Source: Microbacterium terrae
GTDB taxonomy: Bacteria; Actinomycetota; Actinomycetes; Actinomycetales; Microbacteriaceae
Length of the DNA stretch: 64,000 nucleotides
Assembly (NCBI RefSeq): GCF_017831975.1
Contig: NZ_JAFDSS010000001.1
Location: 1,178,001-1,242,000, forward strand
Direction: 5' to 3'
The position numbers and the translations under genes were made by a program. This document shows positions 47,604 to 61,366 of the stretch, one piece after another (position 1 is the stretch's first letter; each line of letters opens with the position of its first letter). The notes below the pieces were generated by a model, which was given only the letters and a program-made list of their open reading frames with translations, had not been told where the DNA came from and ran no database searches.

Positions 47604-47796
47604 GCGCACAGTCTGGCACGCCGACACGCGGAGGCCACCGGTTCGCGGCATCCGGGGTCATCTGGCAGAATAGAGGGCTGGTGGCCGCGCTCGACCCTCT
47701 ATCCAGCGCCGGCATCCTCCCTCAGAGCTTCCGCCGGGTGTGCACCCCACTCTCCAGGCGATCGGTTCAATCACTTTCCACACATTCAGGAGAATC
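47604..47796 (+). promoter_or_regulatory. rpsP promoter and leader region
   Basis: CAGAAT at 47666-47671 is a plausible -10 for the rpsP operon, leaving a leader of more than 100 bases before the AGGAGA ribosome binding site at 47789-47794. The left edge carries the -10 of the divergent ligase gene (47615 to 47610). I could not identify a structured ribosomal-protein leader. Confidence 0.4.
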
Positions 47797-48219
47797 GTGG
47801 CTGTCAAGATCCGTCTCAAGCGGCTCGGCAAGATCCGTGCCCCGTACTACCGCATCGTCGTCGCCGACTCGCGCACCAAGCGCGATGGTCGTGTCATCGA
47901 GGAGATCGGCAAGTACCACCCCACCGAGAACCCCTCGTTCATCGAGGTCGACACCGACCGTGCGCAGTACTGGCTGTCGGTGGGCGCTCAGCCGACCGAG
48001 CAGGTGCTCGCCATCCTCAAGCTGACCGGCGACTGGGGCAAGTTCCAGGGCGACGCGAACGCCGTCTCGACCGTGAAGACCGCTGAGCCCAAGGCCGCGT
48101 TCGAGGTCGACTCCGCCAAGAAGTCGGTCATCAAGCCCAAGGCTGAGAAGAAGGCCGAGGCCGCTCCGGCAGCCGACGCTGAGGCCGAGGCTTCCGCCGA
48201 CCAGGCCGACGCAGAGTAA
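47797..48219 (+). CDS. rpsP: 30S ribosomal protein S16
   Basis: A 140-residue S16. The core ([26 protein letters not shown] to [21 protein letters not shown]) is standard, followed by an extra Lys/Ala/Glu-rich tail of about 55 residues, as seen in other actinobacteria. GTG 47797 has CAGGAGA upstream. It starts the rpsP-khpA-rimM operon, which in relatives continues with trmD and rplS but is interrupted here. Confidence 0.97.
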
Positions 48220-48223
48220 TCCG

Positions 48224-48454
48224 TTGCTGGCCGCCGCGCTCGAGCACGTCGTCAAGGGGATCGTCGATCACCCCGACGACGTGCGTATCGACTCCTCCAC
48301 GTCGCCCCGCGGCGACGTGCTCGAGGTGCACGTCCACCCCGATGACCGGGGTCGTGTGATCGGGCGCGGCGGCCGTACGGCCAAAGCCCTGCGCACCCTC
48401 ATCAGCGCCCTCGCCGACGGACGCCGTGTGCGCGTCGACGTCGCGGACGACTGA
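48224..48454 (+). CDS. khpA: KH-domain RNA-binding protein
   Basis: A 76-residue single KH domain (YlqC/KhpA family) with the RNA-binding loop GRVIGRGGRTAKALRTLI, the GxxG motif. KhpA works with KhpB in some Gram-positives to bind many RNAs and affect division and cell size. It starts with TTG four bases after rpsP and is followed by rimM one base after its stop, so it belongs to the ribosome-maturation operon. Confidence 0.94.
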   Translation: MLAAALEHVVKGIVDHPDDVRIDSSTSPRGDVLEVHVHPDDRGRVIGRGGRTAKALRTLISALADGRRVRVDVADD

Positions 48455-48455
48455 G

Positions 48456-49136
48456 GTGTCAGACGCAGGAAAGGATGCCGGCGCACCCGCGCCCGCATCC
48501 GAGAAGACCAAGGTCGGCGCTGCGCCGACCGGCCGCACCCAGCTGCGGGTGGGGCGCCTCGTCAAGGCCCACGGCCTGAAGGGCGCCCTCAAGCTGGAGC
48601 TGTACACCGACGACCCCGACGGCCGTTTCACGGCCGGCGCGACGTTCACCCTCCAGGTGCCCGAGTCGTCGCCGTGGCACGGCAAGCCGCTCACGGTGCG
48701 CGAGTTCCGCTGGATGAACAGCCACCCCGTCGCCTTCTTCGAGGGTGTGGACGACCGCGACACCGCCGAAGAGCTCGTCCGTGCGATCCTCTGGATCGAC
48801 GAGGACCCGCGTGCGGTCAGCACCGAACCCGATGCCTGGTACGACCACCAGCTCGTCGGTCTCGACGTCGTCCGCGACGAGGTCGTGATCGGCCGGATCG
48901 TCCGCGTGGAGCACCTGCCCGCACAGGACCTGCTCGTCATCCGGGCAGCCGGCGCTGCATCCGACGACGAGGTCCTCGTTCCGTTCGTCAAGGCCATCGT
49001 CCCCGAGGTCGACCTCGCGGCCGGACGCGTGGTCGTCACCCCGCCCGCGGGCCTGTTCGAGCCGCTCCCCGAGAGCGATGCCGAGGGCGACAGCGACTCG
49101 GCCGATGCGGCCGCCGCGGACGACGACGCATCCTGA
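48456..49136 (+). CDS. rimM: 16S rRNA processing protein RimM
   Basis: Assists maturation of the 30S head and binds S19. The 226-residue protein has the N-terminal barrel RVGRLVKAHGLKGALKLELYTDDP and the C-terminal PRC barrel (WYDHQLVGLDVV to VLVPFVKAIVPEVDLAAGRVVVTPPAGLFE). A disordered N-terminal segment and an acidic Asp/Ala tail extend it beyond the E. coli length. GTG 48456 follows khpA at once. trmD would normally be next, but nitrate genes intervene and trmD is 5.9 kb away. Confidence 0.95.
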   Translation: MSDAGKDAGAPAPASEKTKVGAAPTGRTQLRVGRLVKAHGLKGALKLELYTDDPDGRFTAGATFTLQVPESSPWHGKPLTVREFRWMNSHPVAFFEGVDDRDTAEELVRAILWIDEDPRAVSTEPDAWYDHQLVGLDVVRDEVVIGRIVRVEHLPAQDLLVIRAAGAASDDEVLVPFVKAIVPEVDLAAGRVVVTPPAGLFEPLPESDAEGDSDSADAAAADDDAS

Positions 49137-49163
49137 CGTCCTCACACCGTCTCCCGGGTGACC

Positions 49164-49190
49164 GTGAGGTCGGTGTGATCGTTCGGTAAC
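49164..49190 (+). promoter_or_regulatory. Triple half-site operator of the nitrate reductase gene
   Basis: GTGAG-n6-GTGAT-n6-GTAAC places three half-sites at exact 11-base steps, 44 bases before the start codon. The same plan recurs before narK and nirB. It resembles GlnR boxes (GTnAC-n6-GAAAC). Confidence 0.65.
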
Positions 49191-49234
49191 ACGCCGCGCG
49201 TGCCCGTGGAACATCGGTCGGCGACCATGGGGGG

Positions 49235-52200
49235 ATGAGCCTCACCGCGCAGTCATCCGCCGCGCGCGCCGACGCACCCACGTCGACGACTCGCACGGTG
49301 TGCTCGTACTGCGGCGTCGGCTGCGGCATCTCGGTGACGTCGACGCGTGACGGCGACGGCGCCCTCACGGTGGCGAAGACCGTGGGCGACCGCATCCACC
49401 CGACGAACGCCGGCCGTCTGTGCACCAAGGGCGCGACCCACGTCGAGCTGATGGCGGCTCCGGGTCGCATGGTCTCGGCCCACATCCGGCAGGACCGCGG
49501 CGATGCCCCCGAGCCGGTCGCGCTCGACGAGGCAGTCGCGGTCGCGGGGGCGCGGCTGCGCGCGATCGTCGACGAGCACGGGCCCGACGCGATCGCCCTG
49601 TACGTGTCGGGGCAGATGTCGATCGAAGCGCAGTACCTGTCGAACAAGCTCGTGAAGGGGTACCTCCGGGGCCTGCACATCGAGTCGAACTCGCGCCTGT
49701 GCATGGCCTCGGCGGGCACGGGCTACAAGCAGTCGCTCGGCGCGGACGGCCCTCCCGGATCGTACGAGGACTTCGACCGCACCCACCTGTTCTTCGTGAT
49801 CGGGTCGAACATCGCCGACTGCCACCCGATCCTGTTCCTCCGGATGGCCGACCGGCTCAAGCAGGGCGCACGGCTCATCGTCGTCGACCCGCGCCGCACC
49901 GCGTCGGCCGATCGGGCCGACCTCTTCCTGCAGATCCGGCCCGGCACCGACCTGGCGCTCCTCAACGGCCTCCTCCACCTGCTGACGGTCGCGGGAGCGA
50001 TCGACGCCGACTTCATCGCCGCGCACACCGAGGGCTGGGACGCGATGCCCGCCTTCCTGGCGGACTACACGCCCGAGCGGGTGGCGGAGACCACCGGCCT
50101 CGCCGAAGAGGACATCCGCACGGCCGCGCGCTGGATCGCGGAGTCGGGGGAGTGGATGACCCTCTGGACGATGGGTCTCAATCAGTCCACCCAGGGCACG
50201 TGGCACACCAATGCGATCTGCAACCTCCACCTCGCGACGGGCGCGATCTGCCGGCCGGGCAGCGGCCCCTTCTCGCTCACCGGGCAGCCCAACGCCATGG
50301 GCGGGCGCGAGATGGGCTACATGGGCCCGGGCCTTCCCGGACAGCGCGCCGTGTTCAGCGCGGCCGACCGCGCGTTCGTCGAAGGCGTGTGGGGCATCGA
50401 GCCGGGGAGCATCCGTGCCGAGGCGGGCGGCGGCACGATCGAGATGTACCGGGCGATGGCGGAGGGCGACATCAAGGCGGCCTGGATCATCTGCACCAAC
50501 CCGGTCGCGTCGGTCGCCAACCGCAAGAGTGTGATCGCCGGCCTCGAGCAGGCCGAACTGGTGATCGCGCAGGACGTCTACACCGAGACCGCCACGAACG
50601 CGTACGCCGACATCCTGCTCCCCGCGACCCTGTGGGTCGAGTCCGAGGGCGTGATGGTCGGCAGCGATCGCACGATGACCCTCGTCCCGCGGGCGGCGAC
50701 GGCCCCCGGCGACGCCCAGCCCGACTGGCTGCTGATCTGCCGGGTGGCGCAGGCGATGGGCTTCGTCGAGGGATTCTCCTTCGGAAGCTCCGCAGAGGTG
50801 TTCGACGAGATCCGCCGCTTCTGGAACCCGCAGACGGGTTGGGACGTGCGCGGCGTCGACTACGAGCGCCTGCGCCAGGGGCCGGTGCAGTGGCCGGCGC
50901 CGCCCGACGACGCCGAGACGCGGCATCCGATCCGCTATCTCAACGACGGGGTCAGCCAGTCGCTCCACTCCGAAGACGACGGCACCGTGCCGCGTCTGGC
51001 TTTCGCGACGCCGAGCCGGCGTGCGCAGTTCTTCGCTCGGCCGCACCTCGGCCCTGCTGAGCTTCCTGACGACGACTATCCGCTCGTGCTCACCACCGGT
51101 CGCCTGCAGCACCAGTGGCACACGATGACGAAGACGGGCAAGGTCGCCAAGCTGATGAAGCTCAACGCCGAGCCGTTCGTCGAGGTGCACCCGACGGATG
51201 CCGCGGTGCTCGAGATCGCCGACGGCGACATCGTCGAAGTGTCGTCACGGCGGGGGCGTGTGGTGCTGCCGGCGGTCGTCACCGAACGGATGCGTCCGGG
51301 GGCGATGTTCGCGCCGTTCCACTGGAACGACGAGCACGGCGAGTACCTGACGGTGAACGCCGTGACGAGCGACGCCGTAGACGCGGCCTCGCTGCAGCCC
51401 GAGTTCAAGCACGCCGCAGTGGCGCTGCGGCGCGTGGGGTCGGCCCCGGCGCCTGCGGCCCCGACCGCTGCCGGGGCGGTGCGTGCACTGCTGGAGGCCG
51501 CCGGCACCGCGCCGGTGCTCACCGATGCCGAGGCGGCGTACGTCGCCGGCTTCGTTCAAGCCCTCGATGCAGTTCCCCTCGCCCCGGGCGCGGTCGCGGT
51601 GCTGCCGGATGCCGCGCCGCTGGGCGACCTCGCACGCGGCTGGTTCGGGGGAGTGCTCGCGGGCATCGCAGCCCGGATCGAGGCCGCCCCGGCGACCGAG
51701 ACGCCCGTCGGCGGCGACGCCGTCACCGTGCTGTGGGGCTCGCAGACGGGCAACGCCGAGGAGCTCGCACTCGGATGCGCGGCTACGCTCATCGCCCGGG
51801 GCATCGAAGCGCGCTCGGTGAGCATGCTCGACATCGATGCCGCGGCGCTCACGGGCATCGGGCGGCTCCTCGTCGTCACCTCGACCTTCGGCGACGGCGG
51901 TCCGCCCGACAACGCCGCCGACCTGTGGGCGCAGCTCGCAGCCGATACGGCGCCGCGTCTGGACGACCTCGAGTACGCGGTGTTCGCGATCGGCGACCCG
52001 AGCTACGACGACTTCTGCGGCCACGGCCGCGAGATCCACGACCGCCTCGCGGCGCTCGGTGCGACGGCCTTCCTTCCGCGCGTGGACGCCGAACCCGAGT
52101 ACGAGGGCCCGGCGGCGACGTGGATCGAGCAGGTCGTGGCGGCCTTCGGCGGTGTCGCCGCAGCCGTGCCGGCCGCACCGGCGACCCGACGACTGTTCAC

Positions 52201-53311
52201 CCGCGCGAACCCGGTCACGGCGCCGCTCGTGACGAACCGACTGCTGAGCGCCCCCGGGTCGGCCAAAGAGGTGCGCCAGTTCGGGTTCGACCTGCGTCAC
52301 ACCGGTGCGACCTACGAGGCGGGCGACTCGCTCGGCGTGGTCGTCGCGAACTCCGCAGCAGTCGCCGATGAGTGGCTCGGCCTGACCGGGCTGTCGCCGC
52401 ACACGGTGATCGAACTCGACGGACAGGAGCGCTTCCTCGGCGACGCCGCGCGCCGCAAGCTCGACGTCACCCGGGTGACCCCGGCCCTGCTGGAGTTCCT
52501 CGGTGAGCGCAGCTCCGACCCGCACCTGGCGACGCTGCTGCGTCGCGACAGCAGGCAGCGACTGGAGCAGTACCTGTGGAGCATGCAGGCGATGGACCTG
52601 CTCCGCCGCTTCCCGGTGCGCGCCGATGCGTCCGAATGGGTGGACGTGCTCGGCCGGCTGCAGCCCCGGCAGTACTCGATCTCGTCGAGCCCGAAGAACT
52701 CGCCCGACGAGGTGCAGCTGACGGTGTCGGTCGTGCGGTTCGACACCGAGGACGGTGTCGGGCGCGGCGGCGTCGGATCGACGTACCTCGCCGACGGGTC
52801 CGCGGCCTCCGGCGTGCCGGTGTACCTGCAGCGCTCGGCGCACTTCCGTCCGCCGGTCGATCCCGACGCCCGCATGATCATGATCGGCCCCGGCACCGGC
52901 ATCGCGCCCTTCCGCGCGTTCCTCCACGACCGGCGGGCGGACGGGCACACCGGCCGCAACTGGCTGTTCTTCGGCGAGCAGCACGAGGCCACCGACTTCT
53001 ACTACCGCGACGAGCTGCTCGAGATGCGAGACGACGGCTTCCTCACGCGACTCGACGTCGCCTTCTCGCGCGACCAGCGCCAGAAGGTGTACGTGCAGGA
53101 CCGCATGATCGAGCACGGCGCCCTGCTGTGGCGCTGGCTCGAAGAGGGAGCATCCGTCTTCGTCTGCGGCGATGCCAGCCGCATGGCGACCGACGTCGAC
53201 AACACCCTCACCGCCGTCGTGCGCCAGCACGGCGGCATGAGCGAGGAGGATGCGCTGGAGTACAAGCGCACCCTCACCGCGCAGAAGCGCTACGTGCGCG
53301 ACGTCTACTGA
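49235..53311 (+). CDS. Assimilatory nitrate reductase fused to a flavodoxin-FAD/NADPH reductase
   Basis: A 1358-residue fusion that should reduce nitrate to nitrite with NADPH. Residues 1-75 hold the 4Fe-4S motif CSYCGVGCG and LCTKG. Residues to about 725 form the molybdopterin oxidoreductase, with likely Mo-ligand cysteine in SRLCMASAGTGYKQSLG. From about 828 a flavodoxin (VTVLWGSQTGNAEELAL) is followed by a CysJ-type FAD domain (RQYSISSSPKNSPDEV near 1142) and an NADPH domain (IGPGTGIAPFRAFLHDRR, SVFVCGDASRMATDV). The fused reductase removes the need for a separate electron donor. It reads toward the convergent narK; a triple half-site operator lies upstream. Confidence 0.93.
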   Translation: MSLTAQSSAARADAPTSTTRTVCSYCGVGCGISVTSTRDGDGALTVAKTVGDRIHPTNAGRLCTKGATHVELMAAPGRMVSAHIRQDRGDAPEPVALDEAVAVAGARLRAIVDEHGPDAIALYVSGQMSIEAQYLSNKLVKGYLRGLHIESNSRLCMASAGTGYKQSLGADGPPGSYEDFDRTHLFFVIGSNIADCHPILFLRMADRLKQGARLIVVDPRRTASADRADLFLQIRPGTDLALLNGLLHLLTVAGAIDADFIAAHTEGWDAMPAFLADYTPERVAETTGLAEEDIRTAARWIAESGEWMTLWTMGLNQSTQGTWHTNAICNLHLATGAICRPGSGPFSLTGQPNAMGGREMGYMGPGLPGQRAVFSAADRAFVEGVWGIEPGSIRAEAGGGTIEMYRAMAEGDIKAAWIICTNPVASVANRKSVIAGLEQAELVIAQDVYTETATNAYADILLPATLWVESEGVMVGSDRTMTLVPRAATAPGDAQPDWLLICRVAQAMGFVEGFSFGSSAEVFDEIRRFWNPQTGWDVRGVDYERLRQGPVQWPAPPDDAETRHPIRYLNDGVSQSLHSEDDGTVPRLAFATPSRRAQFFARPHLGPAELPDDDYPLVLTTGRLQHQWHTMTKTGKVAKLMKLNAEPFVEVHPTDAAVLEIADGDIVEVSSRRGRVVLPAVVTERMRPGAMFAPFHWNDEHGEYLTVNAVTSDAVDAASLQPEFKHAAVALRRVGSAPAPAAPTAAGAVRALLEAAGTAPVLTDAEAAYVAGFVQALDAVPLAPGAVAVLPDAAPLGDLARGWFGGVLAGIAARIEAAPATETPVGGDAVTVLWGSQTGNAEELALGCAATLIARGIEARSVSMLDIDAAALTGIGRLLVVTSTFGDGGPPDNAADLWAQLAADTAPRLDDLEYAVFAIGDPSYDDFCGHGREIHDRLAALGATAFLPRVDAEPEYEGPAATWIEQVVAAFGGVAAAVPAAPATRRLFTRANPVTAPLVTNRLLSAPGSAKEVRQFGFDLRHTGATYEAGDSLGVVVANSAAVADEWLGLTGLSPHTVIELDGQERFLGDAARRKLDVTRVTPALLEFLGERSSDPHLATLLRRDSRQRLEQYLWSMQAMDLLRRFPVRADASEWVDVLGRLQPRQYSISSSPKNSPDEVQLTVSVVRFDTEDGVGRGGVGSTYLADGSAASGVPVYLQRSAHFRPPVDPDARMIMIGPGTGIAPFRAFLHDRRADGHTGRNWLFFGEQHEATDFYYRDELLEMRDDGFLTRLDVAFSRDQRQKVYVQDRMIEHGALLWRWLEEGASVFVCGDASRMATDVDNTLTAVVRQHGGMSEEDALEYKRTLTAQKRYVRDVY

Positions 53312-53348
53312 CGCGGCATCCGTCCACCTGCCGGCGCGGATCACCCGC

Positions 53349-53429
53349 GGCCGGACACGACGGAAGCGGGGCCGGACACCACGAGAGCGGGGCCGCATCC
53401 GATGTGGATGCGGCCCCGCTCTCGTGGTG
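53349..53429. terminator. Strong bidirectional terminator between nitrate reductase and narK
   Basis: The arms 53377-53400 and 53406-53429 form a perfect 24-base-pair stem with a GATGT loop (stem core CGAGAGCGGGGCC). The 5' side belongs to an imperfect 21-base tandem repeat beginning GGCCGGACAC at 53349 and 53370. There is no long T-run, but two converging units end here. Confidence 0.8.
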
Positions 53430-53439
53430 GGTCTGCCGG

Positions 53440-54867
53440 TCAGATGCGCTGCTTGGCGAATGCCGCACGGGGGATCACGTACACGGTGAACGTGATGACG
53501 AGGAGCGCGACGTACGCCGCGACGAAGCCGTAGAACGCCGCGATGTACGAACCGGTCGCGAGCTGCGACGCGTTCAGCACCTGCGGGATCACGAAGCCGC
53601 CGTACGCGCCGATGCCGGAGATGATGCCGAGCGCAGCCGCGGACTTGCGGAGCTGCTTCTTCGCGGCGTCGGTGTCGGGCTCGATGCCCTTCGCGATCGC
53701 CCGGGCGGCGAAGATGTTCGGGATCATGCGGTAGGTCGACCCGTTGCCGACGCCCGTGGCTGCGAACAGCACGAGGAAGCAGAGCAGGAACACCCAGAAG
53801 TTCTGCAGCGGCAGCGTCCAGATGAGCGCCAGCGCCCCGAGAGCCATCAGTGCGAAGGCGATGACGGTCATCCGCGCGCCGCCGATACGGTCGGCGAGCT
53901 TGCCGCCGTACGGCCGGGCCAGCGAGCCGACGAGGGCGCCGAGGAAGGCGAGCGTGATCGCCGTCTGGCCGATCTGGATGGTGCTGAAGTCGGGGAACAG
54001 GTCGGCGATGAGCTTCGGGAAGACGCTCGCGAAGCCGATGAACGAGCCGAACGTGCCGATGTACAGCAGCGACATGAGCCACAGGTGCGGTTCGCGCAGC
54101 GCCGCGGCCGATCCGGCGAAGTCGGCCTTCGCCGACGACAGGTTGTCCATGTAGCGCCATGCGCCCCACATCGCCACGAGGATGAGGGGGATCCACATCC
54201 AGCCGGCGAGCGAGATGTTCGTCACCGCGCCGGCGCCGATGGTCACCGCGATCGGCACGGCGAACTGGGCGACCGAGGTGCCGAGGTTGCCTCCGGCGGC
54301 ATTGAGCCCGAGCGCCCAGCCCTTCTCCTTCTGCGGGAAGAAGTAGGTGATGTTCGCCATGGAACTGGCGAAGTTGCCGCCGCCGAAGCCGCCGAGAGCG
54401 GCGACGAGCAGGAGGACGCCGAACGGCGTCTCGGGGTTCTGCACGACGAAGCCGAGCAGCGTCGCCGGGATGAGCAGCAGACCGGCCGAGACGATCGTCC
54501 AGTTGCGGCCGCCGAAGATCGCGACCATGAAGGTGTAGGGGAAGCGCAGCGTCGCGCCGACGAGGCTCGGCACCGAGATGAGCCAGAACAGCTCCGAGCT
54601 CGTGAGGGTGAACCCGGCCGCAGGGAGCATCACGACCACGATGCTCCACAGCTGCCAGATGATGAAGCCGAGGAACTCGGCGAAGATCGACCAGCCGAGG
54701 TTGCGCCGCGCGATGCCGCGCCCCTCGGCCTTCCAGAACGCGGTGTCCTCGGGGTTCCAGCCGTCGATCCAGCGGCCGGAACGGTGGGTGAGGGTGGTGG
54801 TGCTGACCGACGACGCGGCGGGTGATGCCGCGTCATCCGTCGTCGACGGGGTGACGGTGCTGGTCAT
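53440..54867 (-). CDS. narK: Nitrate/nitrite transporter, MFS family
   Basis: A 475-residue major facilitator protein with about twelve membrane helices, importing nitrate and perhaps exporting nitrite. The nitrate signature is present in GGFGGGNFASSMANITYFF and again in GVGNGSTYRMIPNIFAA, with the helix-2 arginine in ATLRFPYTF that binds the anion. GGAGG precedes ATG 54867 by four to five bases. The N-terminal 30 residues are a Ser/Thr-rich cytoplasmic tail. A triple half-site operator lies 73 bases upstream, shared in form with the nitrate and nitrite reductase promoters. Confidence 0.95.
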   Translation of the reverse strand: MTSTVTPSTTDDAASPAASSVSTTTLTHRSGRWIDGWNPEDTAFWKAEGRGIARRNLGWSIFAEFLGFIIWQLWSIVVVMLPAAGFTLTSSELFWLISVPSLVGATLRFPYTFMVAIFGGRNWTIVSAGLLLIPATLLGFVVQNPETPFGVLLLVAALGGFGGGNFASSMANITYFFPQKEKGWALGLNAAGGNLGTSVAQFAVPIAVTIGAGAVTNISLAGWMWIPLILVAMWGAWRYMDNLSSAKADFAGSAAALREPHLWLMSLLYIGTFGSFIGFASVFPKLIADLFPDFSTIQIGQTAITLAFLGALVGSLARPYGGKLADRIGGARMTVIAFALMALGALALIWTLPLQNFWVFLLCFLVLFAATGVGNGSTYRMIPNIFAARAIAKGIEPDTDAAKKQLRKSAAALGIISGIGAYGGFVIPQVLNASQLATGSYIAAFYGFVAAYVALLVITFTVYVIPRAAFAKQRI

Positions 54868-54939
54868 GACGCCTCCAGAGGTGGGGGTGATTATGACCCC
54901 AGGCTAGAAAGCTCGTGTTTCAGCCCTCACCCCTGCGCG

Positions 54940-54966
54940 GTTACTTCTCGATCACACCTCAGTCAC
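54940..54966 (-). promoter_or_regulatory. Triple half-site operator of narK
   Basis: On the minus strand GTGAC-n6-GTGAT-n6-GTAAC stands at 11-base spacing. Its middle and right half-sites (GTGAT, GTAAC) match the nitrate reductase operator exactly. It also lies about 60 bases from the trmD -10 on the other strand. Confidence 0.65.
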
Positions 54967-55025
54967 GCCGGGGGGCGGCAGGCGGTTAGCGTCTCGTCAC
55001 ACGTCGGAAACACGGGTCGGATGCC

Positions 55026-55031
55026 TAGACT
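55026..55031 (+). promoter_or_regulatory. Leaderless -10 of trmD
   Basis: TAGACT is followed by six bases and ATG 55038. This private promoter replaces the rpsP-operon transcription that trmD normally relies on. Confidence 0.6.
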
Positions 55032-55037
55032 CGAAGG

Positions 55038-55724
55038 ATGCGCGTCGACATCGTCACGATCTTCCCTGGATTCTTCGACGTGCTCGACGTCTCTCTCATC
55101 GGCAAGGCCCGCGACCGCGGCATCCTGTCGATGCACGTGCACGATCTGCGGGAGTGGACCCACGACCGCCACCGCACCGTCGACGACACCCCGTACGGCG
55201 GCGGTGCCGGCATGGTGATGAAGCCCGAGCCCTGGGGGGAGGCGCTCGACGCCGTGCTCGGCGAGGACGCCGTGCTCATCGTGCCCTCGCCCGCCGGCGA
55301 GCGGTTCACGCAGGCCATGGCGCGCGAACTCGCGGGCGAAAGCCAGCTGGTGTTCGCGTGCGGTCGATACGAGGGGATCGACCAGCGGGTCGTCGACCAC
55401 TACTCGGCGCGCGGACGGGTGCGCCTGGTGAGCCTCGGCGACTACGTCCTCAACGGCGGCGAGGTCGCCGCGATGGCGGTGATCGAAGCGGTATCTCGAC
55501 TGGTCCCCGGCGTGGTCGGCAACCCCGACAGCCTCGTCGAGGAGTCGCACGAGGACGGGCTGCTCGAATACCCCAGCTACACCAAGCCGGCCGTGTGGCG
55601 CGGCCACGAGGTGCCGCCGGTGCTGCTCAGCGGCAACCACGGCGCGATCGCCGCGTGGCGACGCGAGCAGAGCCTCGAGCGCACCCGCACCACGCGTCCC
55701 GACCTGCTCCCGGATGCCGGGTGA
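55038..55724 (+). CDS. trmD: tRNA (guanine(37)-N1)-methyltransferase
   Basis: Methylates G37 next to the anticodon and prevents frameshifting. The 228-residue SPOUT enzyme has [16 protein letters not shown], the [15 protein letters not shown] loop, [14 protein letters not shown] and the knotted SAM site [17 protein letters not shown]. The gene stands alone between nitrate genes: narK is divergent on the left and the HemD-regulator gene convergent on the right. In relatives it follows rimM and precedes rplS; neither is adjacent here. It has its own leaderless promoter. Confidence 0.97.
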
Positions 55725-55748
55725 CCGGCGCCCGAGACGCGGCGGCGA

Positions 55749-56897
55749 TCAGGCGGGGGCCTCGGCGGGATCGAGCACATTGAGGCGGTAGCCGCGCTTG
55801 ACGACCGTCTTGATGAGGTCGGGCTCGCCGATCGCCTCGCGAACGCGCGCGACGGCCATCTCGACCGCATGAGTGTTCGCGCCCGAGCGGGGGAGCGCGT
55901 CCTGCAGCCGCGTCCGCGACACCACTGCGCCCCCGGCCGCGAACAGCGCGGCGAGGATGTCTACGCCGGTCCGCGACAGGGGCACGTGCCGACCGTCGAT
56001 GACGGCGCCGGTGCTGCGCAGTTCGAGCCGCCCGGCGGAGGTCGGAAGGGATGCCGCGTGTCCGCCGCCGAAGTGGGTGACGACGGCACGCACCAGGGAG
56101 CCGAGGCGCCCCCGCTCGGCGATGAGCGGCTCGATGCCCACGTCGGTGAGGGGCGCTGCGGTGATCGGACCGACCGACGCCATGAGCACGCGGTGCGTCT
56201 CGCAGCGGCGGATGATCTCGGGGAGCACGCCCTCGCGGGCAGCGGCGTCGAGCCACTCCGCCGCGCCGGGAGCCGAGGTGAAGATGACGGCGTCGACCTC
56301 GCCCTGGGCAGTGGCGATCACCGAGCGGCTCACCGCGGCGGGGTCGGGCGGCGGCCCCCAGCGATACACGGTGAGGCTGACGACGTCGGCGTGCGCCTGG
56401 GCGAAGAGCTCGTCGAGCCCGTCCGCGCCCGAGCCGTGGTGCTGGACCGCGACGCGGCGGCCGGCGACGCCTTCGGCGAGGAGGTACTCGCCGAGCTCGG
56501 TCGACGTCTCGGACTCCGCCACCCAGTCGGCGGTGAGGCCGGACTGCTGGATCGCACCGCGGGCCTTGGGGCCGCGCGCGACGATCTGCGCGCGCGAGAG
56601 CGCGTGGTGGAGGTCGTCGAGCAGCCCCGCCTCGTCGGCGGCCTCGATCCAGCCGCGGAACCCCACACCGGTCGTGGCGACGACGATCTCCGGCGGATTC
56701 GCGATCAGCTCGCGGGTCGCGGCGATGAGCGCGTCGTCGTCGATGTGCGGCACGATCGTCAAGGCCGGTGCGTGGCGGACCGTCGCGCCGTGGCGCTCGA
56801 GCGCAGCGGCGAGTTCGCCGGATCGCCGATCGACGGCGATGACGATCGTGCATCCGTCCAGTGCGGCTGACAGGACGGGGCGGTTCGGAGCTGTCAC
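55749..56897 (-). CDS. HemD-winged helix regulator of nitrate assimilation (NnaR-like)
   Basis: A 382-residue two-domain protein. Residues about 15-270 are a uroporphyrinogen-III synthase (HemD) fold ([36 protein letters not shown]). The last 95 are an OmpR-type winged helix ([55 protein letters not shown]). The same fusion is known as NnaR in Streptomyces, which works with GlnR on nitrate and nitrite genes, so a regulatory role is likely; real synthase activity is uncertain. The GTG start overlaps the siroheme synthase stop as GTGA. It is the last gene of the nirBD operon. Confidence 0.9.
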
Positions 56898-58126
56898 CGG
56901 GTTCGGTCACCTGTCAGTTCGGGTACGGGGAGCAGAAGGTCGGCACGGGCGACGTCGCCGATCACGACGACGGCGGGATTGGTCACACCCGCACCCCGCG
57001 CGTCGGAGACGGCGGTGGCGAGCGTGGTGCGGGTCGTGCGCTGGTCGGGCGTGTGCCCACTCTCGACGATAGCGACTGGACGGGTCGTCGGTGCGCCGGC
57101 GGCGAGTGCCGCAGCGACGATCGACGGCAGTGCTGCGACGCCCATGAGCACGACGGTGGTGACCGTGTCGTCGGCGAGGGCCGCGAGCGTCGACGAGGTC
57201 AACTCGCCCTGGCCGTTGACCACGTGCAGACCCGCCGCGGTTCCGCGATGGGTGACGGGGATGCCGGCGGACTGGGGCACCGAGACGACACTGGTGAGGC
57301 CGGGCACGACCTCGACCGCGACACCGGCGGCCAGGCACGCGGCGACTTCTTCGCCGCCGCGCCCGAAGACGAACGGGTCGCCGCCCTTGAGACGCACGAC
57401 GCGCTTGCCGGCCCGCGCGTGACGCACGATGATCGCGTTGATCTCGTCCTGCGGCACAGGGTGGTGTCCGGGCCGCTTGCCCACGTCGACGACCTCGACC
57501 TCGGGGTCGAGCTCGGCCAGCACGTGCGTGGGGCCGAGGCGATCGGCGACGACGACATCGGCCTCCGCGAGGAGACGGCGTCCGCGCACGGTCATGAGGT
57601 CGGCGGGCCCGGGACCGCCGCCGACGAGGTCGACGCGACCCACCGCGGTCGCCCGACGGCGACGCAGCGGGAGGGAGCCGTCGCGCAGGAGCGCGCCGAT
57701 GGCGTCGCGCAGGCGCGCGGCGCGGCGCGGGTCGACGCTCGCGTCGGAGACGACTCCGACGACCACGTCTCCGGAGCGGGTCTCGGCAGCGAGCCGCGCC
57801 GAGCCGTGAGCGCCGTCGGCCGCGTTGACGCACGGGGTCTGCCGGCGCTCGCACGCCGCGAAGACCGCGTCGTCGGTCCGCGGGTCGCCCGTGGCCGTGT
57901 GCACGAGCCACGCGCCCGTCACGTCGGCCGCGCGGAACCGCCGGCGGGTCCAGACGAGCCGGTGCTCGGCGATGAGCCGAGCGACGTCGCCGCCGACCTC
58001 GGGCGCGACGACGCGCACACGCGCCCCGTCGGCGAGGAACCGCTCGAGCCGCCGTGCGGTCACCGCCCCGCCGCCGACCATCACCACGGAGCGGCCGCTC
58101 AGCGAGAGGCCGATCATGGTCGTCAT
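56894..58126 (-). CDS. Siroheme synthase (precorrin-2 dehydrogenase/ferrochelatase fused to uroporphyrinogen-III C-methyltransferase)
   Basis: Makes siroheme, the cofactor of NirB. The 410-residue fusion starts with a Met8/SirC-type NAD domain ([22 protein letters not shown]) and continues from about residue 165 with the SUMT domain: [58 protein letters not shown] and [22 protein letters not shown]. It is a CysG-like arrangement. ATG 58126 overlaps nirD by ATGA and its stop overlaps the regulator gene, so all four genes from nirB are translationally chained. Confidence 0.92.
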
Positions 58127-58518
58127 CGTGGCACGTCCCAGCGCACCAGCACATCGTCGCCGTCGACGGCGACGGGCCACACGTGCAGGCCGATTGGGTC
58201 CTTGCCCTGTGCGTCGAGGCAGACGCCGGTGCGCAGGTCGAAGACCTGCTTGTACATGGGCGAGGCCACCGTGGGCGCGTCGCCGCGCGTTCCGACGATG
58301 CCCCGTGAGATCACGTTCGCCCGGCTGTACGGGTCGAAATTCGACACCGCATGCACGCGGCCGTCGGCGCCGTCCGCGCCGCGCAGCAGGAAGAGCGCGA
58401 TCTGCGTGCCGCCGAGCAGGGCGGCTCGGCCGCGCTCCACCTCGAGGTCGCCGAGCGCGCACACGCGCACCCAACCGGGTCGAACGGTCTCGGTCTCGGG
58501 CTGGTCCACGAGAGTCAT
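58123..58518 (-). CDS. nirD: Nitrite reductase (NADH) small subunit
   Basis: A 131-residue Rieske-fold partner of NirB. It follows the NirD pattern (WVRVCALGDLEVERG, IALFLLRG, VHAVSNFDPYSRANVISRGIVG, ASPMYKQVFDLRTGVCLDAQG). The cysteine and histidine ligands of a true Rieske 2Fe-2S centre are absent, which is normal for NirD. It overlaps nirB upstream and the siroheme synthase downstream by four bases each. Confidence 0.95.
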   Translation of the reverse strand: MTLVDQPETETVRPGWVRVCALGDLEVERGRAALLGGTQIALFLLRGADGADGRVHAVSNFDPYSRANVISRGIVGTRGDAPTVASPMYKQVFDLRTGVCLDAQGKDPIGLHVWPVAVDGDDVLVRWDVPR

Positions 58519-61214
58519 CGACGCACCTCCAGGGTCGTTCCGGCGATGAGCACGCCGCCGGCGCGCTCCTCCTCGGTCGCGGGCCGCACCTGACCGCGTT
58601 CGCCGACATACGCCAGCGACGGGTCGGGAGTGTCCGGAGCGTTCACGAACGACGCGAACCGGCGGAGCTTCTCAGGGTCCTGCAGCGTCGCGGCCCATTC
58701 GTCCTCGTACGAGTCGACGTGTGCGGCCATCGCGGCGTCGAGGTCGGCGCAGATGCCGAGGCTGTCGTCGAACACGACCGCCTTCAGCGCCTCCAGCCCG
58801 CCTTCGAGGTCTTCGAACCACGGGGCGGTCCGCTGCAGCCGGTCGGCGGTGAAGATGTAGTACATCAGGAACCGGTCGATGGCCTGGAGCAGCTCGGCGT
58901 CGCTCAGTCCCTCCGCGAACAGCACGGCGTGGCGCGGGGTGAATCCGCCGTTGCCGCCGACGTACATGTTCCAGCCCGCTTCGGTCGCGATGACGCCGAC
59001 GTCCTTGCCGCGCGCCTCCGCGCACTCACGGGCGCAGCCCGACACGCCCAGCTTGATCTTGTGGGGCGAGCGCAGCCCGCGGTAGCGCAGCTCGAGCTGC
59101 ACGGCCATGCCGACGGAGTCCTGCACGCCGTACCGGCACCAGGTGGATCCGACGCACGACTTCACTGTGCGCAGCGACTTGCCGTACGCGTGACCCGACT
59201 CCATCCCGGCGTCGACGAGGCGCTTCCAGATCTCGGGAAGCTGCTCGAGGCGGGCTCCGAACAGGTCGATGCGCTGGCCGCCGGTGATCTTCGTGTACAG
59301 CCCGAAGTCCTGGGCCACCTGCCCGATCACGAGCAGGCCCTCGGGGGTGATCTCGCCGCCCGGGATGCGCGGGACGACGGAGTAGCTGCCGTCCTTCTGC
59401 ATGTTCGCCATGACGTGGTCGTTGGTGTCCTGCAGCGTGGCGTTCTCGCCGTCGAGCACGTGGCCGCGCACGAGGGTCGAGAGGATGCTGGCGAGCGCCG
59501 GCTTGCAGATGTCGCAGCCCCGGCCCTGGCCGAACCGCTCGATGACCGAGCTGAACGTCGTGAGTCCCGAGACGCGGACCGCGTCGAACAGCTGGCGGCG
59601 CGACATGTCGAAGTGCTCGCAGATCGCGTTGCTGAGGGTCGCGCCGGCCTTCGCGAGCTCGGTGCCGACGATCTTCTTGACCATCATCACGCACGACCCG
59701 CAGGCGGCGCCGGCCTTGGTGCACGCCTTCACGGCGGCGACATCGGTGCAGCCCTCGTCGTGCACCGCGCCGCGGATGGTGCCGGCGGTCACGCTGTTGC
59801 ACGAGCAGACGAGGGCGGCGTCGGGCAGGTCGCCGGTCGGCGCCTCGACGCCTCCCTCGGGCATGAGGTACGCGGCGGGGTCGCCGCCCAGGGCGCTGCC
59901 GACGAGGGGACGGAGCGAGCCGTAGGCCGATGCGTCGCCGACGAGGATGCCGCCGAGCAGCGTCTTCGCGTCGTCCGAGAGCACGAGCTTCTTGTAGACG
60001 CCCGCCACCGGGTCGGAGTAGACCACGTCGAGCGCGCCCGGCGTCTCGGCGAAGGCGTCGCCGAAGCTCGCGACATCCACGCCTGACAGCTTCAGCTTGG
60101 TCGACAGGTCGTAGCCGGGGAAGGATGCCGAGGCGTCGCCCGCCTCCGAGCCGAGGAGACGGGAGGCGGCGACCTCTGCCATGGCGTAGCCGGGGGCGAC
60201 GAGGCCGACGCACATCCCGTCGAAGTTCGCGACCTCGCCGATCGCGAGGATGCGGGGGTCGGAGGTCTGGCAGCCGTCGTCGATGAGGACGCCGCCGCGC
60301 GGGTGCACGTCGAGGTCGGCCGCACGGGCCAGTTCGTCGCGCGGGCGCACGCCGACGGTGAAAACGACGACGTCGGTGCGCTCGTACGCGCCGTCGCGGA
60401 ACTCGAGCCCGGCGACCTGTCCGGAGCGGTCGGGGTCGAGGCGGGTCGTGACCGTTCCGGTCTTCACGGTGATCCCGCGCGACTCGATGAGGCGGCGCAG
60501 GGAGTTGCCGGCGGGCAGATCGAGCTGCGCCGACATCAGGCGGTCGGAGGACTGCACGACGGTGCACAGGACATCGAGTCCCTGGAGCGCCCCGGCGGCT
60601 TCGAGGCCGAGGAGACCGCCGCCGATCACCGTGCCGGTGAGCGGACGGCCGAGCTCGGCGGAGCGGGCGGTGACGAAGGCGCGCAGGCTCTCGACGTCGT
60701 CGAGCGTGCGGTACACGAAGCAGCCCGGCAGTCCGAAGCCCTCGACGGCGAGGCGGGCCGCATACGAGCCGGTCGCGAGGACCAGTCGGTCGTAGCCGAT
60801 GCTCAGGCCGCTGCGCGTCGTGACGCGGCGTGCGTCGCGGTCGATGCGCGCGACGGCATCGCCGCGCACGAACCGCAGGCGCTCGTCGTCGAACACGCTG
60901 CGGTCGAGGGTGAGGTCATCCGTGCTGGCGCCTCCGAAGAATCCGGTGAGGCCGACGCGGTCGTACGGGTGCCGGTCCTCCTCGCCGATGATCGTCACGC
61001 GCCACTGCTCGCCGGCGCGGCTGAGGAGGCTCTCCGCGAACCGGTGCGCGACCATGCCGGCGCCGACGACGACCACGTGGGGTCCGGGCGCGGCGGCGGT
61101 GTGCATGTCGTCACGGTACGCGGGGGTTGTTGCCGCGACGTCAGTCCCGTGTTTCGGGCTCTTGACGGAACGCCGTGTCTTCGGCGCGGGCGTGCGGGGC
61201 GTTTCCTCGGTCAT
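58515..61214 (-). CDS. nirB: Nitrite reductase (NADH) large subunit
   Basis: Reduces nitrite to ammonium with six electrons from NADH. The 899-residue protein has an FAD/NAD domain (HVVVVGAGMVAHRFAESLL; VIGGGLLGLEAAGAL), a BFD-like 2Fe-2S region (ALVCSCNSVTAGTIRGAV; CGSCVMMVKKI), and the siroheme/4Fe-4S reductase core with VKSCVGSTWCRYG near residue 685 and SGCARECAEARGKD near 724. TAGGAGACGTC immediately precedes ATG 61214, which fixes the start, although this adds a 36-residue basic N-terminal tail before MHTAAAPGPHVVVV. It is the first gene of the four-gene operon, with an operator upstream. Confidence 0.96.
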   Translation of the reverse strand: MTEETPRTPAPKTRRSVKSPKHGTDVAATTPAYRDDMHTAAAPGPHVVVVGAGMVAHRFAESLLSRAGEQWRVTIIGEEDRHPYDRVGLTGFFGGASTDDLTLDRSVFDDERLRFVRGDAVARIDRDARRVTTRSGLSIGYDRLVLATGSYAARLAVEGFGLPGCFVYRTLDDVESLRAFVTARSAELGRPLTGTVIGGGLLGLEAAGALQGLDVLCTVVQSSDRLMSAQLDLPAGNSLRRLIESRGITVKTGTVTTRLDPDRSGQVAGLEFRDGAYERTDVVVFTVGVRPRDELARAADLDVHPRGGVLIDDGCQTSDPRILAIGEVANFDGMCVGLVAPGYAMAEVAASRLLGSEAGDASASFPGYDLSTKLKLSGVDVASFGDAFAETPGALDVVYSDPVAGVYKKLVLSDDAKTLLGGILVGDASAYGSLRPLVGSALGGDPAAYLMPEGGVEAPTGDLPDAALVCSCNSVTAGTIRGAVHDEGCTDVAAVKACTKAGAACGSCVMMVKKIVGTELAKAGATLSNAICEHFDMSRRQLFDAVRVSGLTTFSSVIERFGQGRGCDICKPALASILSTLVRGHVLDGENATLQDTNDHVMANMQKDGSYSVVPRIPGGEITPEGLLVIGQVAQDFGLYTKITGGQRIDLFGARLEQLPEIWKRLVDAGMESGHAYGKSLRTVKSCVGSTWCRYGVQDSVGMAVQLELRYRGLRSPHKIKLGVSGCARECAEARGKDVGVIATEAGWNMYVGGNGGFTPRHAVLFAEGLSDAELLQAIDRFLMYYIFTADRLQRTAPWFEDLEGGLEALKAVVFDDSLGICADLDAAMAAHVDSYEDEWAATLQDPEKLRRFASFVNAPDTPDPSLAYVGERGQVRPATEEERAGGVLIAGTTLEVRR

Positions 61215-61289
61215 GACGTCTCCTACCAGGCGCTCTGCTTCGGTTTCCCTCACGGTAGGAGCGCGGTGTTCCCGCCCGATTCGGCGCCG

Positions 61290-61316
61290 GTTACTCCGAG
61301 CGAACGTTTCTCTCAC
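61290..61316 (-). promoter_or_regulatory. Triple half-site operator of the nirBD operon
   Basis: On the minus strand GTGAG-n6-GTTCG-n6-GTAAC again places three half-sites at 11-base steps, 75 bases before nirB. The central half-site is more diverged than in the other two copies. Confidence 0.6.
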
Positions 61317-61366
61317 ACGGGTTCGCGGCGCGATGTGAGATCGGATGCCGTCGCCCGCGCGGCCGG

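What the first reader, a model, noticed from the sequence alone, without database searches (positions are those of the whole stretch)
49164..61316. Three nitrate-assimilation promoters share a triple half-site at exact 11-base spacing
GTGAG-n6-GTGAT-n6-GTAAC (49164-49190, nitrate reductase), GTGAC-n6-GTGAT-n6-GTAAC (54966 to 54940, narK) and GTGAG-n6-GTTCG-n6-GTAAC (61316 to 61290, nirB) all point toward their genes. They leave 44, 72 and 75 bases to the start. The last half-site is identical in all three, and helical phasing is kept over 12 kb on both strands. GlnR boxes are built from GTnAC and GAAAC half-sites at the same step, and the operon encodes an NnaR-like regulator, so this is probably their joint operator in a variant form. 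One or two half-sites may belong to NnaR.
Basis: partly seen in the sequence, partly recalled or inferred. Interest (0 to 1): 0.75.

Follow-up and report, generated by a model that had tools for sequence, protein, structure and literature searches.

The report
Nitrate switch wired to NADPH supply
In a Microbacterium-like bacterium the three nitrate-gene promoters share a DNA strip that resembles the known boxes of two nitrogen regulators, NnaR and GlnR, set 11 bases apart, and the same NnaR-type box lies before the genes of the NADPH-making pentose phosphate pathway, so the switch for using nitrate would likely also raise the reducing power that nitrate use needs.

Summary
The 'triple half-site' is the right part of a longer operator. 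At nasC and narK the other two half-sites form a GlnR-type box 11 bp on. The genome encodes NnaR (HemD-wHTH) and GlnR. The composite is conserved in Microbacterium; in class, order and family scans 29 of 31 annotated exact places with this gap lie before nirB, nasC or narK. At nirB the middle half-site GTTCG lacks the key A4, yet is conserved. At narK a mirrored GlnR-type box makes a symmetric six-half-site operator. Besides that mirrored reading, the only other matches (up to 3 mismatches) in the 3.9-Mb genome lie before gnd and between ctaB and a tkt-tal-pgi-zwf-opcA-pgl cluster. In 30 chosen genomes the palindrome stands at tkt in 14 of 19 with NnaR and at gnd in 12 of 18, but in 0 of 11 without NnaR; the choice favoured genomes near the window. 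The nitrate operators are new members of a known kind; the NADPH link appears new and is untested at the bench.

The parts
49141..49168 (+). NnaR-type palindrome before nasC: CTCACA (49141-49146)-N16-CGTGAG (49163-49168)
   Evidence: published motif, one departure (C for T/G before GTGAG); conserved
49175..49190 (+). GlnR-type box before nasC: GTGAT-n6-GTAAC
49235..53311 (+). nitrate reductase-like, molybdopterin domains fused to a CysJ-like diflavin reductase (NasN-like architecture)
   Evidence: Pfam domains; NCBIfam NasC and CysJ models match below their cut-offs; NasN description in PMC11162112 passages
53440..54867 (-). narK-like nitrate/nitrite MFS transporter
   Evidence: NCBIfam NarK-family models match below cut-off
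54940..54955 (-). GlnR-type box before narK: GTGAT-n6-GTAAC
54962..54989 (-). NnaR-type palindrome before narK: CTAACC (54989-54984)-N16-CGTGAC; departures in both arms
54996..55011 (+). mirrored GlnR-type box GTCAC-n6-GAAAC on the other side of the narK palindrome, facing trmD
   Evidence: (L024)
54901..54921 (-). conserved GAAACAC (54921-54915) and predicted -10 TAGCCT (54906-54901) of narK
   Evidence: function inferred
55749..56897 (-). nnaR: uroporphyrinogen-III synthase (HemD) domain plus winged helix
56894..58609 (-). siroheme synthase-like gene (NAD-binding plus TP_methylase); 5' end uncertain, overlaps nirD
58123..58518 (-). nirD
58515..61214 (-). nirB
   Evidence: translated from 61220, two codons early
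61290..61310 (-). nirB variant: GAAAC (61310-61306) GTTCG (61305-61301) n6 GTAAC (61294-61290)
61312..61339 (-). NnaR-type palindrome before nirB: CTCACA-N16-TGTGAG

Best explanation
The three sites are the right parts of composite operators in which a palindrome resembling the published NnaR box (CTCAC-N18-GTGAG) stands 11 bp before a GlnR-type box (at nirB a variant of it), so NnaR and GlnR likely bind side by side on one face of the DNA and together switch on nitrate use, and the same palindrome before the tkt-to-pgl cluster and gnd means that NnaR is predicted to raise NADPH supply as well. Shown: the sequences, their spacing, their conservation, the genes they precede, the presence of GlnR and NnaR genes, and the co-occurrence of the tkt and gnd palindromes with NnaR in the genomes looked at. 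Inferred: that the palindrome is bound by this NnaR and the box by this GlnR (binding was measured in other actinobacteria), that both activate, that nnaR reinforces its own transcription because it lies downstream of the nirB operator in a head-to-tail gene row, and that pentose phosphate flux rises with nitrate use. NADPH is the plausible reason, because the nitrate reductase carries a CysJ-like diflavin domain like the NADPH-dependent NasN.
For: Palindrome: M. smegmatis ctCACa/c-16N-t/gGTGag next to GlnR motifs, with NnaR binding the nirB and narK promoters in EMSA (PMC6277429 passages); CTCAC[A/C]-16-[T/G]GTGAG (PMC11162112 passages). GlnR box: GTnAC-n6-GNAAC types and the A4 rule (PMC10704036 passages). 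GlnR gene: L003 matches the PDB chain named GlnR (4o1h, E 8.6e-27) and 8hih (E 6.5e-77). NnaR gene. Genome: the composite with up to 3 mismatches has 6 places, control 0: nasC, narK, nirB, the mirrored narK reading, gnd and ctaB/tkt. Genus: up to 1 mismatch, 86 places in 42 of 149 genomes, control 1. Spacer: exact palindromes in 38 Microbacterium loci number 33 at spacer 18 and 0-5 at any other spacer from 8 to 29; 29 of the 33 lie in nirB, narK or nasC promoters. Gap 7: 29 of 31 annotated places lie directly before NirB, NarK or NasC homologues. PPP: of 67 places (control 4), 31 nirB, 12 transporter-like, 5 nasC, 10 tkt, 4 gnd (3 sites), 5 other (10 rows by their 50-mer). Exact tkt hits: 10 of 97 NnaR-matching against 0 of 52 other genomes (Fisher 0.015). 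In 30 chosen genomes, at 9 or 10 of 10 positions: tkt 14 of 19 against 0 of 11, gnd 12 of 18 against 0 of 11, where about 0.012 chance 9-of-10 hits per 330 bp are expected. On a Gnd+Tkt tree the NnaR- genomes G011, G008 and G004, without sites, fall beside or among NnaR+ genomes with sites. Cluster identity.
Against: No binding or expression data for this organism. The 30 genomes were hand-picked, mostly near the window, and 9 (tkt) or 3 (gnd) of the NnaR+ ones were known to have a site; without those the figures are tkt 5 of 10 and gnd 9 of 15 against 0 of 11 (Fisher 0.012 and 0.002), and related genomes are not independent. Exact gnd hits alone, 3 of 97 against 0 of 52, say nothing (Fisher 0.55). 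Most NnaR-matching genomes have no exact tkt hit (87 of 97). Five of 19 NnaR+ genomes lack the tkt site at that position (G141 has a 9-of-10 elsewhere) and six of 18 lack the gnd site. At 9 of 10 positions the preference for spacer 18 is weak (64 places against up to 50 at another spacer). At gnd the GTAAC is 22 bases from a TAGGCT and may be a -35 element, so a GlnR box there is doubtful. The tkt palindrome is about 190 bases from tkt but 51-119 from ctaB (haem O synthase), which may be the real target. In M. smegmatis NnaR and GlnR associated only weakly in pull-down and not in two-hybrid. 24 of 83 annotated free-gap places are scattered over other gaps, with recurring ones at 22 (before glnA-like ORFs), 3 and 19.
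Confidence: 0.8

Rival explanations
1. All half-sites belong to one OmpR-type protein (GlnR alone) that tiles along the DNA at 11-bp steps; NnaR is not involved.
For: All half-sites resemble GTnAC at the same step; GlnR is encoded; Streptomyces GlnR sites form a-b-a-b ladders (PMC10704036 passages).
Against: The outer pair is an inverted repeat with a favoured 18-base spacer (33 exact copies against 0-5 at other spacers) resembling a motif of fragments bound by NnaR in M. smegmatis, and the sites at tkt and gnd go with NnaR presence in the genomes tested.
Confidence: 0.08
2. MtrA, not GlnR, is the main occupant of the GTGAT-n6-GTAAC box.
For: An MtrA orthologue is encoded (L004; 2gwr E 4.5e-98); MtrA and GlnR motifs are reported as nearly identical, and the two compete at nitrogen genes in Streptomyces.
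Against: In Streptomyces, GlnR is described as decisive for nitrogen genes, and the box adjoins an NnaR-type palindrome here. Competition by MtrA would be compatible with the main reading.
Confidence: 0.1
3. The palindromes at tkt/ctaB and gnd serve another regulator, or ctaB rather than tkt, and their link with NnaR reflects shared ancestry.
For: The tkt site lies 51-119 bases from the ctaB start in relatives and about 190 from tkt; most site-bearing genomes form one clade, and NnaR+ genomes outside it mostly lack the sites.
Against: NnaR- genomes inside or next to site-bearing ones (G011, G008, G004) lack the sites; gnd, at another locus, shows the same pattern; the tkt ladder GTGAG/GTSAC/GACAC keeps the 11-bp step.
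Confidence: 0.27

Closest known systems
NnaR-GlnR co-regulated nitrate promoters of Mycobacterium smegmatis and M. abscessus (PMC6277429, PMC11162112; passages read)
   Same: Same palindrome with 16 bases between hexamers, GlnR motif beside it in M. smegmatis, same kinds of target genes (nirBD, narK, nasN in M. abscessus, formate/nitrate transporter).
   Different: Here the GlnR-type box follows at an 11-bp step; narK has such boxes on both sides; the palindrome also occurs at pentose phosphate genes, whereas the M. abscessus paper predicted only two sites, narK3-sirB and nasN.
GlnR boxes of Streptomyces, Amycolatopsis and mycobacteria (review PMC10704036, passages)
   Same: GTnAC-n6-GNAAC half-sites with A at position 4.
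   Different: At nirB the middle half-site is GTTCG, without A4; at nasC and narK the first half-site ends in T.
Nitrate-dependent rise of pentose phosphate enzymes in Aspergillus nidulans, absent in a nirA mutant (PMC8140973 passages)
   Same: A nitrate-specific activator is needed for raised NADPH-pathway enzymes.
   Different: A fungal system whose mechanism is called unknown there; here DNA sites resembling those of the nitrate regulator stand in the pathway's own promoters.

Membership tests
NnaR box (nirB, tkt) | CTCAC[A/C]-16N-[T/G]GTGAG | tested here: met
   nirB CTCACA-N16-TGTGAG; tkt CTCACA-N16-GGTGAG
NnaR box (nasC, narK, gnd) | CTCAC[A/C]-16N-[T/G]GTGAG | tested here: inconclusive
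   nasC and gnd have C before GTGAG, one departure; narK has CTAACC and CGTGAC, three departures
NnaR box | GlnR motif nearby at a conserved spacing | tested here: met
   11-bp step at nasC and narK, similar ladder at tkt; variant at nirB; doubtful at gnd
NnaR box | HemD-wHTH NnaR encoded in the genome | tested here: met
   40 of 42 genomes with the pattern match NnaR
NnaR box | bound by NnaR, NnaR-dependent transcription | not testable with these tools
   needs EMSA and a mutant
GlnR box (nasC, narK) | two half-sites GTnAC / GNAAC 11 bp apart with A at position 4 | tested here: met
   GTGAT-n6-GTAAC, the first with T for the last C
GlnR box (nirB) | A at position 4 of each half-site | tested here: not met
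   GTTCG has C; conserved in the genus. nirB is not filed as a canonical GlnR box
GlnR box | GlnR encoded in the genome | tested here: met
GlnR box | protected by GlnR in footprinting | not testable with these tools
   bench work

The most novel reading that the evidence does not exclude
In a group of Microbacterium species the nitrate regulator NnaR commands the whole oxidative pentose phosphate pathway (tkt-tal-pgi-zwf-opcA-pgl and gnd) together with nitrate uptake and reduction, so nitrate assimilation pulls its own NADPH; NnaR and GlnR sit at helically locked steps, with gaps of 7, 17/18 or 28 bases across the actinobacterial class.
Probability: 0.6. Interest if true: 0.75.

Novelty: new variant of a known kind. 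Interest (0 to 1): 0.62.

Why it matters
It would give a direct transcriptional wire between a nitrogen-source regulator and the main NADPH pathway in a bacterium, a coupling seen at enzyme level in a fungus but left mechanistically open there. It also turns a loosely described NnaR-GlnR partnership into an exact geometric rule (11 bp, or one or two turns more) that spacing mutants can test.

Tried and rejected
A single tiled GlnR operator was considered and dropped because the outer pair is an inverted repeat with one favoured spacer. The nirB GTTCG as a decayed half-site was dropped because it is kept in the genus. The GTAAC at gnd as a GlnR half-site was not upheld: it stands 22 bases from TAGGCT, so it may be a -35. 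A conserved GAAACAC 23 bases after the start of GTAAC in narK and nirB promoters (GAACACC in the window's own nirB) was left unexplained. Rows not examined: two places without a locus (G616, G549), and the places that neither had a locus (L077-L106) nor were among the 20 stretches. In one search, 10 of 67 rows had no locus of their own: nine were assigned because their 50-mer is identical to one annotated, one (G051) by the nirB-type core. Several ORFs were named by eye only (transporter-like, globin-like, glnA-like, rpsP, rimM, most of the chelatase-like ones). One search also printed phase values with a hand count of 15 genera that I now recount as 13; these values are not used.

Paper searches listed no paper that by title or opening abstract links NnaR with the pentose phosphate pathway; the lists were capped at 8-20 rows and cover only the held open-licence library. 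Read as passages: PMC6277429, PMC10704036, PMC11162112, PMC8140973; no paper was read whole. Amin et al. 2012 and Tan et al. 2020 were not seen.

Full report
Observation. All three strings are present at the stated coordinates and distances. In the whole 3,895,570-base genome the loose form GTNA-n7-GTNA-n7-GTAAC occurs twice, at nasC and narK, and its reversed control not at all; nirB departs from it by its middle half-site.

What it is. Reading upstream, each first half-site is the right arm of an inverted repeat: CTCACA-N16-CGTGAG (nasC), CTAACC-N16-CGTGAC (narK), CTCACA-N16-TGTGAG (nirB). This resembles the motif reported for the HemD-wHTH regulator NnaR in Mycobacterium smegmatis (ctCACa/c-16N-t/gGTGag, beside GlnR motifs, with NnaR binding the nirB and narK promoters in EMSA; PMC6277429, passages) and used in M. 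abscessus (PMC11162112, passages). nirB fits the motif in every position, nasC departs in one, narK in three. The remaining GTGAT-n6-GTAAC at nasC and narK fits the GlnR box GTnAC-n6-GNAAC apart from the T, with the A at position 4 said to be irreplaceable (PMC10704036, passages). The window encodes NnaR (PF02602 plus PF00486); a GlnR orthologue lies elsewhere (L003; 4o1h, named GlnR, E 8.6e-27; 8hih, which I recall to be GlnR, E 6.5e-77), as does MtrA (L004). The organism is Microbacterium-like: NnaR is 69-88% identical to the named Microbacterium loci.

Conservation. In 52 loci with NnaR the composite was scored before nasC, narK and nirB. With the window, 25 of 25 nasC, 26 of 28 narK and 28 of 39 nirB promoters of Microbacterium reach 14 of 20 positions (nirB scored with its own middle motif). 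Of the 11 nirB misses one (L057) is cut at the locus end; in the others the sequence before nirB looks coding, and in the one followed up (L046, the same site as L092) the palindrome lies before a transporter-like gene upstream. In 38 loci (787 kb) exact palindromes number 33 at spacer 18 and at most 5 at any other spacer from 8 to 29; 29 of the 33 are in the three promoters. At 9 or more of 10 positions the contrast is weak, 64 against up to 50. Across the genus the composite (up to 1 mismatch) has 86 places in 42 of 149 genomes, control 1.

nirB and narK details. In Microbacterium nirB the middle is GAAACGTTCG, strongly conserved over the 28 promoters, so it is a true variant and not decay, yet GTTCG breaks the A4 rule. 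Outside the genus exact hits at nirB show GTNA there, but the search pattern itself required GTNA. At narK a second box GTCAC-n6-GAAAC lies 11 bp beyond the left arm on the other strand (window 54996-55011), giving six half-sites in mirror symmetry; in 28 narK promoters GTTnC stands at -22 in 24 and GTGnM (M = A or C) at -11 in 22.

Spacing rule. With the NnaR-to-GlnR gap left free from 1 to 31, four scans gave 29 places (394 genomes of the class, control 5), 32 (201 of one family, control 3), 18 (121 of one genus of 5.5-12-Mb genomes, control 1) and 18 (297 of the order, control 1) (the scans overlap). Of 83 loci annotated, 33 lie directly before NirB, NarK or NasC homologues: gap 7 in 29, gap 18 in 3, gap 28 in 1. 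Two further gap-7 places have no such gene (L111, L177). In the large-genome genus the gap is 17 in 22 of 25 places; in 14 of these 22 the chosen ORF starts 33 bases on and reads by eye like a sirohydrochlorin chelatase. Two ORFs of this group were tested: L123 matched chelatase models below their cut-offs and L162 matched nothing at E 1e-20. The alternatives to 7 (17, 18, 28) are whole helical turns longer; four genus-level draws would all fall so by chance with P about 0.0003, a test made after seeing the data. Against the rule: the remaining places scatter, with recurring gaps of 22 (before glnA-like ORFs), 3 and 19, each within one genus.

The unexpected part. In this genome the composite (up to 3 mismatches) occurs at six places, control 0: the three promoters, the mirrored narK reading, and two more. 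One is about 52 bases before gnd (L021). The other lies between ctaB and a cluster of tkt, tal, a pgi-like gene, zwf, an opcA-like gene and pgl (L023, L284; ctaB, tkt, tal, zwf, pgl and gnd above the NCBIfam cut-offs, pgi and opcA below). A match to NnaR at E 1e-20 or better, some of them weak or partial, is found in 97 of 149 genus genomes. The stricter pattern CTCAC-N18-GTGAG-N17-GNNAC has 67 places in 42 genomes, control 4; by context 31 are nirB, 12 transporter-like (formate/nitrite type, named by eye), 5 nasC, 10 tkt, 4 gnd (3 sites) and 5 other; two of the five are the only hits in genomes without an NnaR match. Exact tkt hits are thus in 10 of 97 against 0 of 52 genomes (Fisher 0.015), exact gnd hits in 3 of 97 against 0 of 52 (0.55). 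I then chose 30 genomes, 19 with and 11 without NnaR, and read the 330 bases before gnd (29 genomes had a match) and tkt. Palindromes of 9 or 10 of 10 stand at tkt in 14 of 19 NnaR+ genomes at the same position (15 with G141, placed elsewhere) and 0 of 11 NnaR-; at gnd in 12 of 18 and 0 of 11. Leaving out NnaR+ genomes whose sites were known beforehand: 5 of 10 and 9 of 15 (Fisher 0.012 and 0.002). About 0.012 chance hits at 9 of 10 are expected per 330 bases. On a Gnd+Tkt tree, read without support values, the NnaR- genomes G011, G008 and G004 fall next to or inside NnaR+ genomes with sites and lack them. At tkt the 11-bp ladder continues as GTGAG/GTSAC/GACAC; at gnd the conserved GTGTAACA stands at the -35 distance from TAGGCT.

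How it likely works. Under nitrogen limitation GlnR, and with it NnaR, would bind side by side and activate nasC, narK and the nirB row, which ends in nnaR, so nnaR would reinforce itself. NnaR at tkt and gnd would raise zwf, pgl and gnd products and so NADPH for the diflavin nitrate reductase. Each binding and activation step here is inferred from relatives. In Aspergillus nidulans nitrate raises pentose phosphate enzymes, but not in a nirA mutant (PMC8140973, passages), so the logic has a fungal parallel. Search listings show cyanobacterial papers naming SigE, NtcA, nitrogen starvation and this pathway (listing only).

Verdict. The nitrate operators are new members of a known kind, with a sharper geometry. 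The pentose phosphate link is the new part and should be tested first.

Noticed in passing
window 47740-55724: The nitrate genes nasC and narK lie inside the usual rpsP-rimM-trmD row: rimM ends at 49136 and trmD starts at 55038 (rpsP and rimM named from their ORFs by eye; trmD). In G140 (L100) trmD also lies beside narK.
   Followed up: partly
window 54915-54921 and the same place in relatives: A heptamer GAAACAC lies 23 bases after the start of GTAAC and about 15 before a predicted -10 in narK and nirB promoters (GGAAC-like at nasC); role unknown.
   Followed up: partly
L145-L148: Four genomes of one genus carry CTCAC-N18-GTGAC 22 bases before a GTAAC-n6-GAAAC box in front of a glnA-like ORF, out of phase with the rule.
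   Followed up: no
L115, L116, L141, L142: A conserved CTCAC-N18-GTGAGCTGTGAGG...GCAAC element (gap 3) before unknown ORFs in one genus.
   Followed up: no
G064:C2:770281-802744; L041 and L057: One genome has three copies of the nirB operator and five NnaR matches; the named record NZ_VFPE01000002.1 (M. kyungheense) likewise holds two NnaR loci, suggesting a duplicated nitrate cluster.
   Followed up: no
L135: A palindrome with a GlnR-like box at gap 29 before a globin-like ORF (named by eye), recalling NnaR control of trHbN in M. smegmatis.
   Followed up: no
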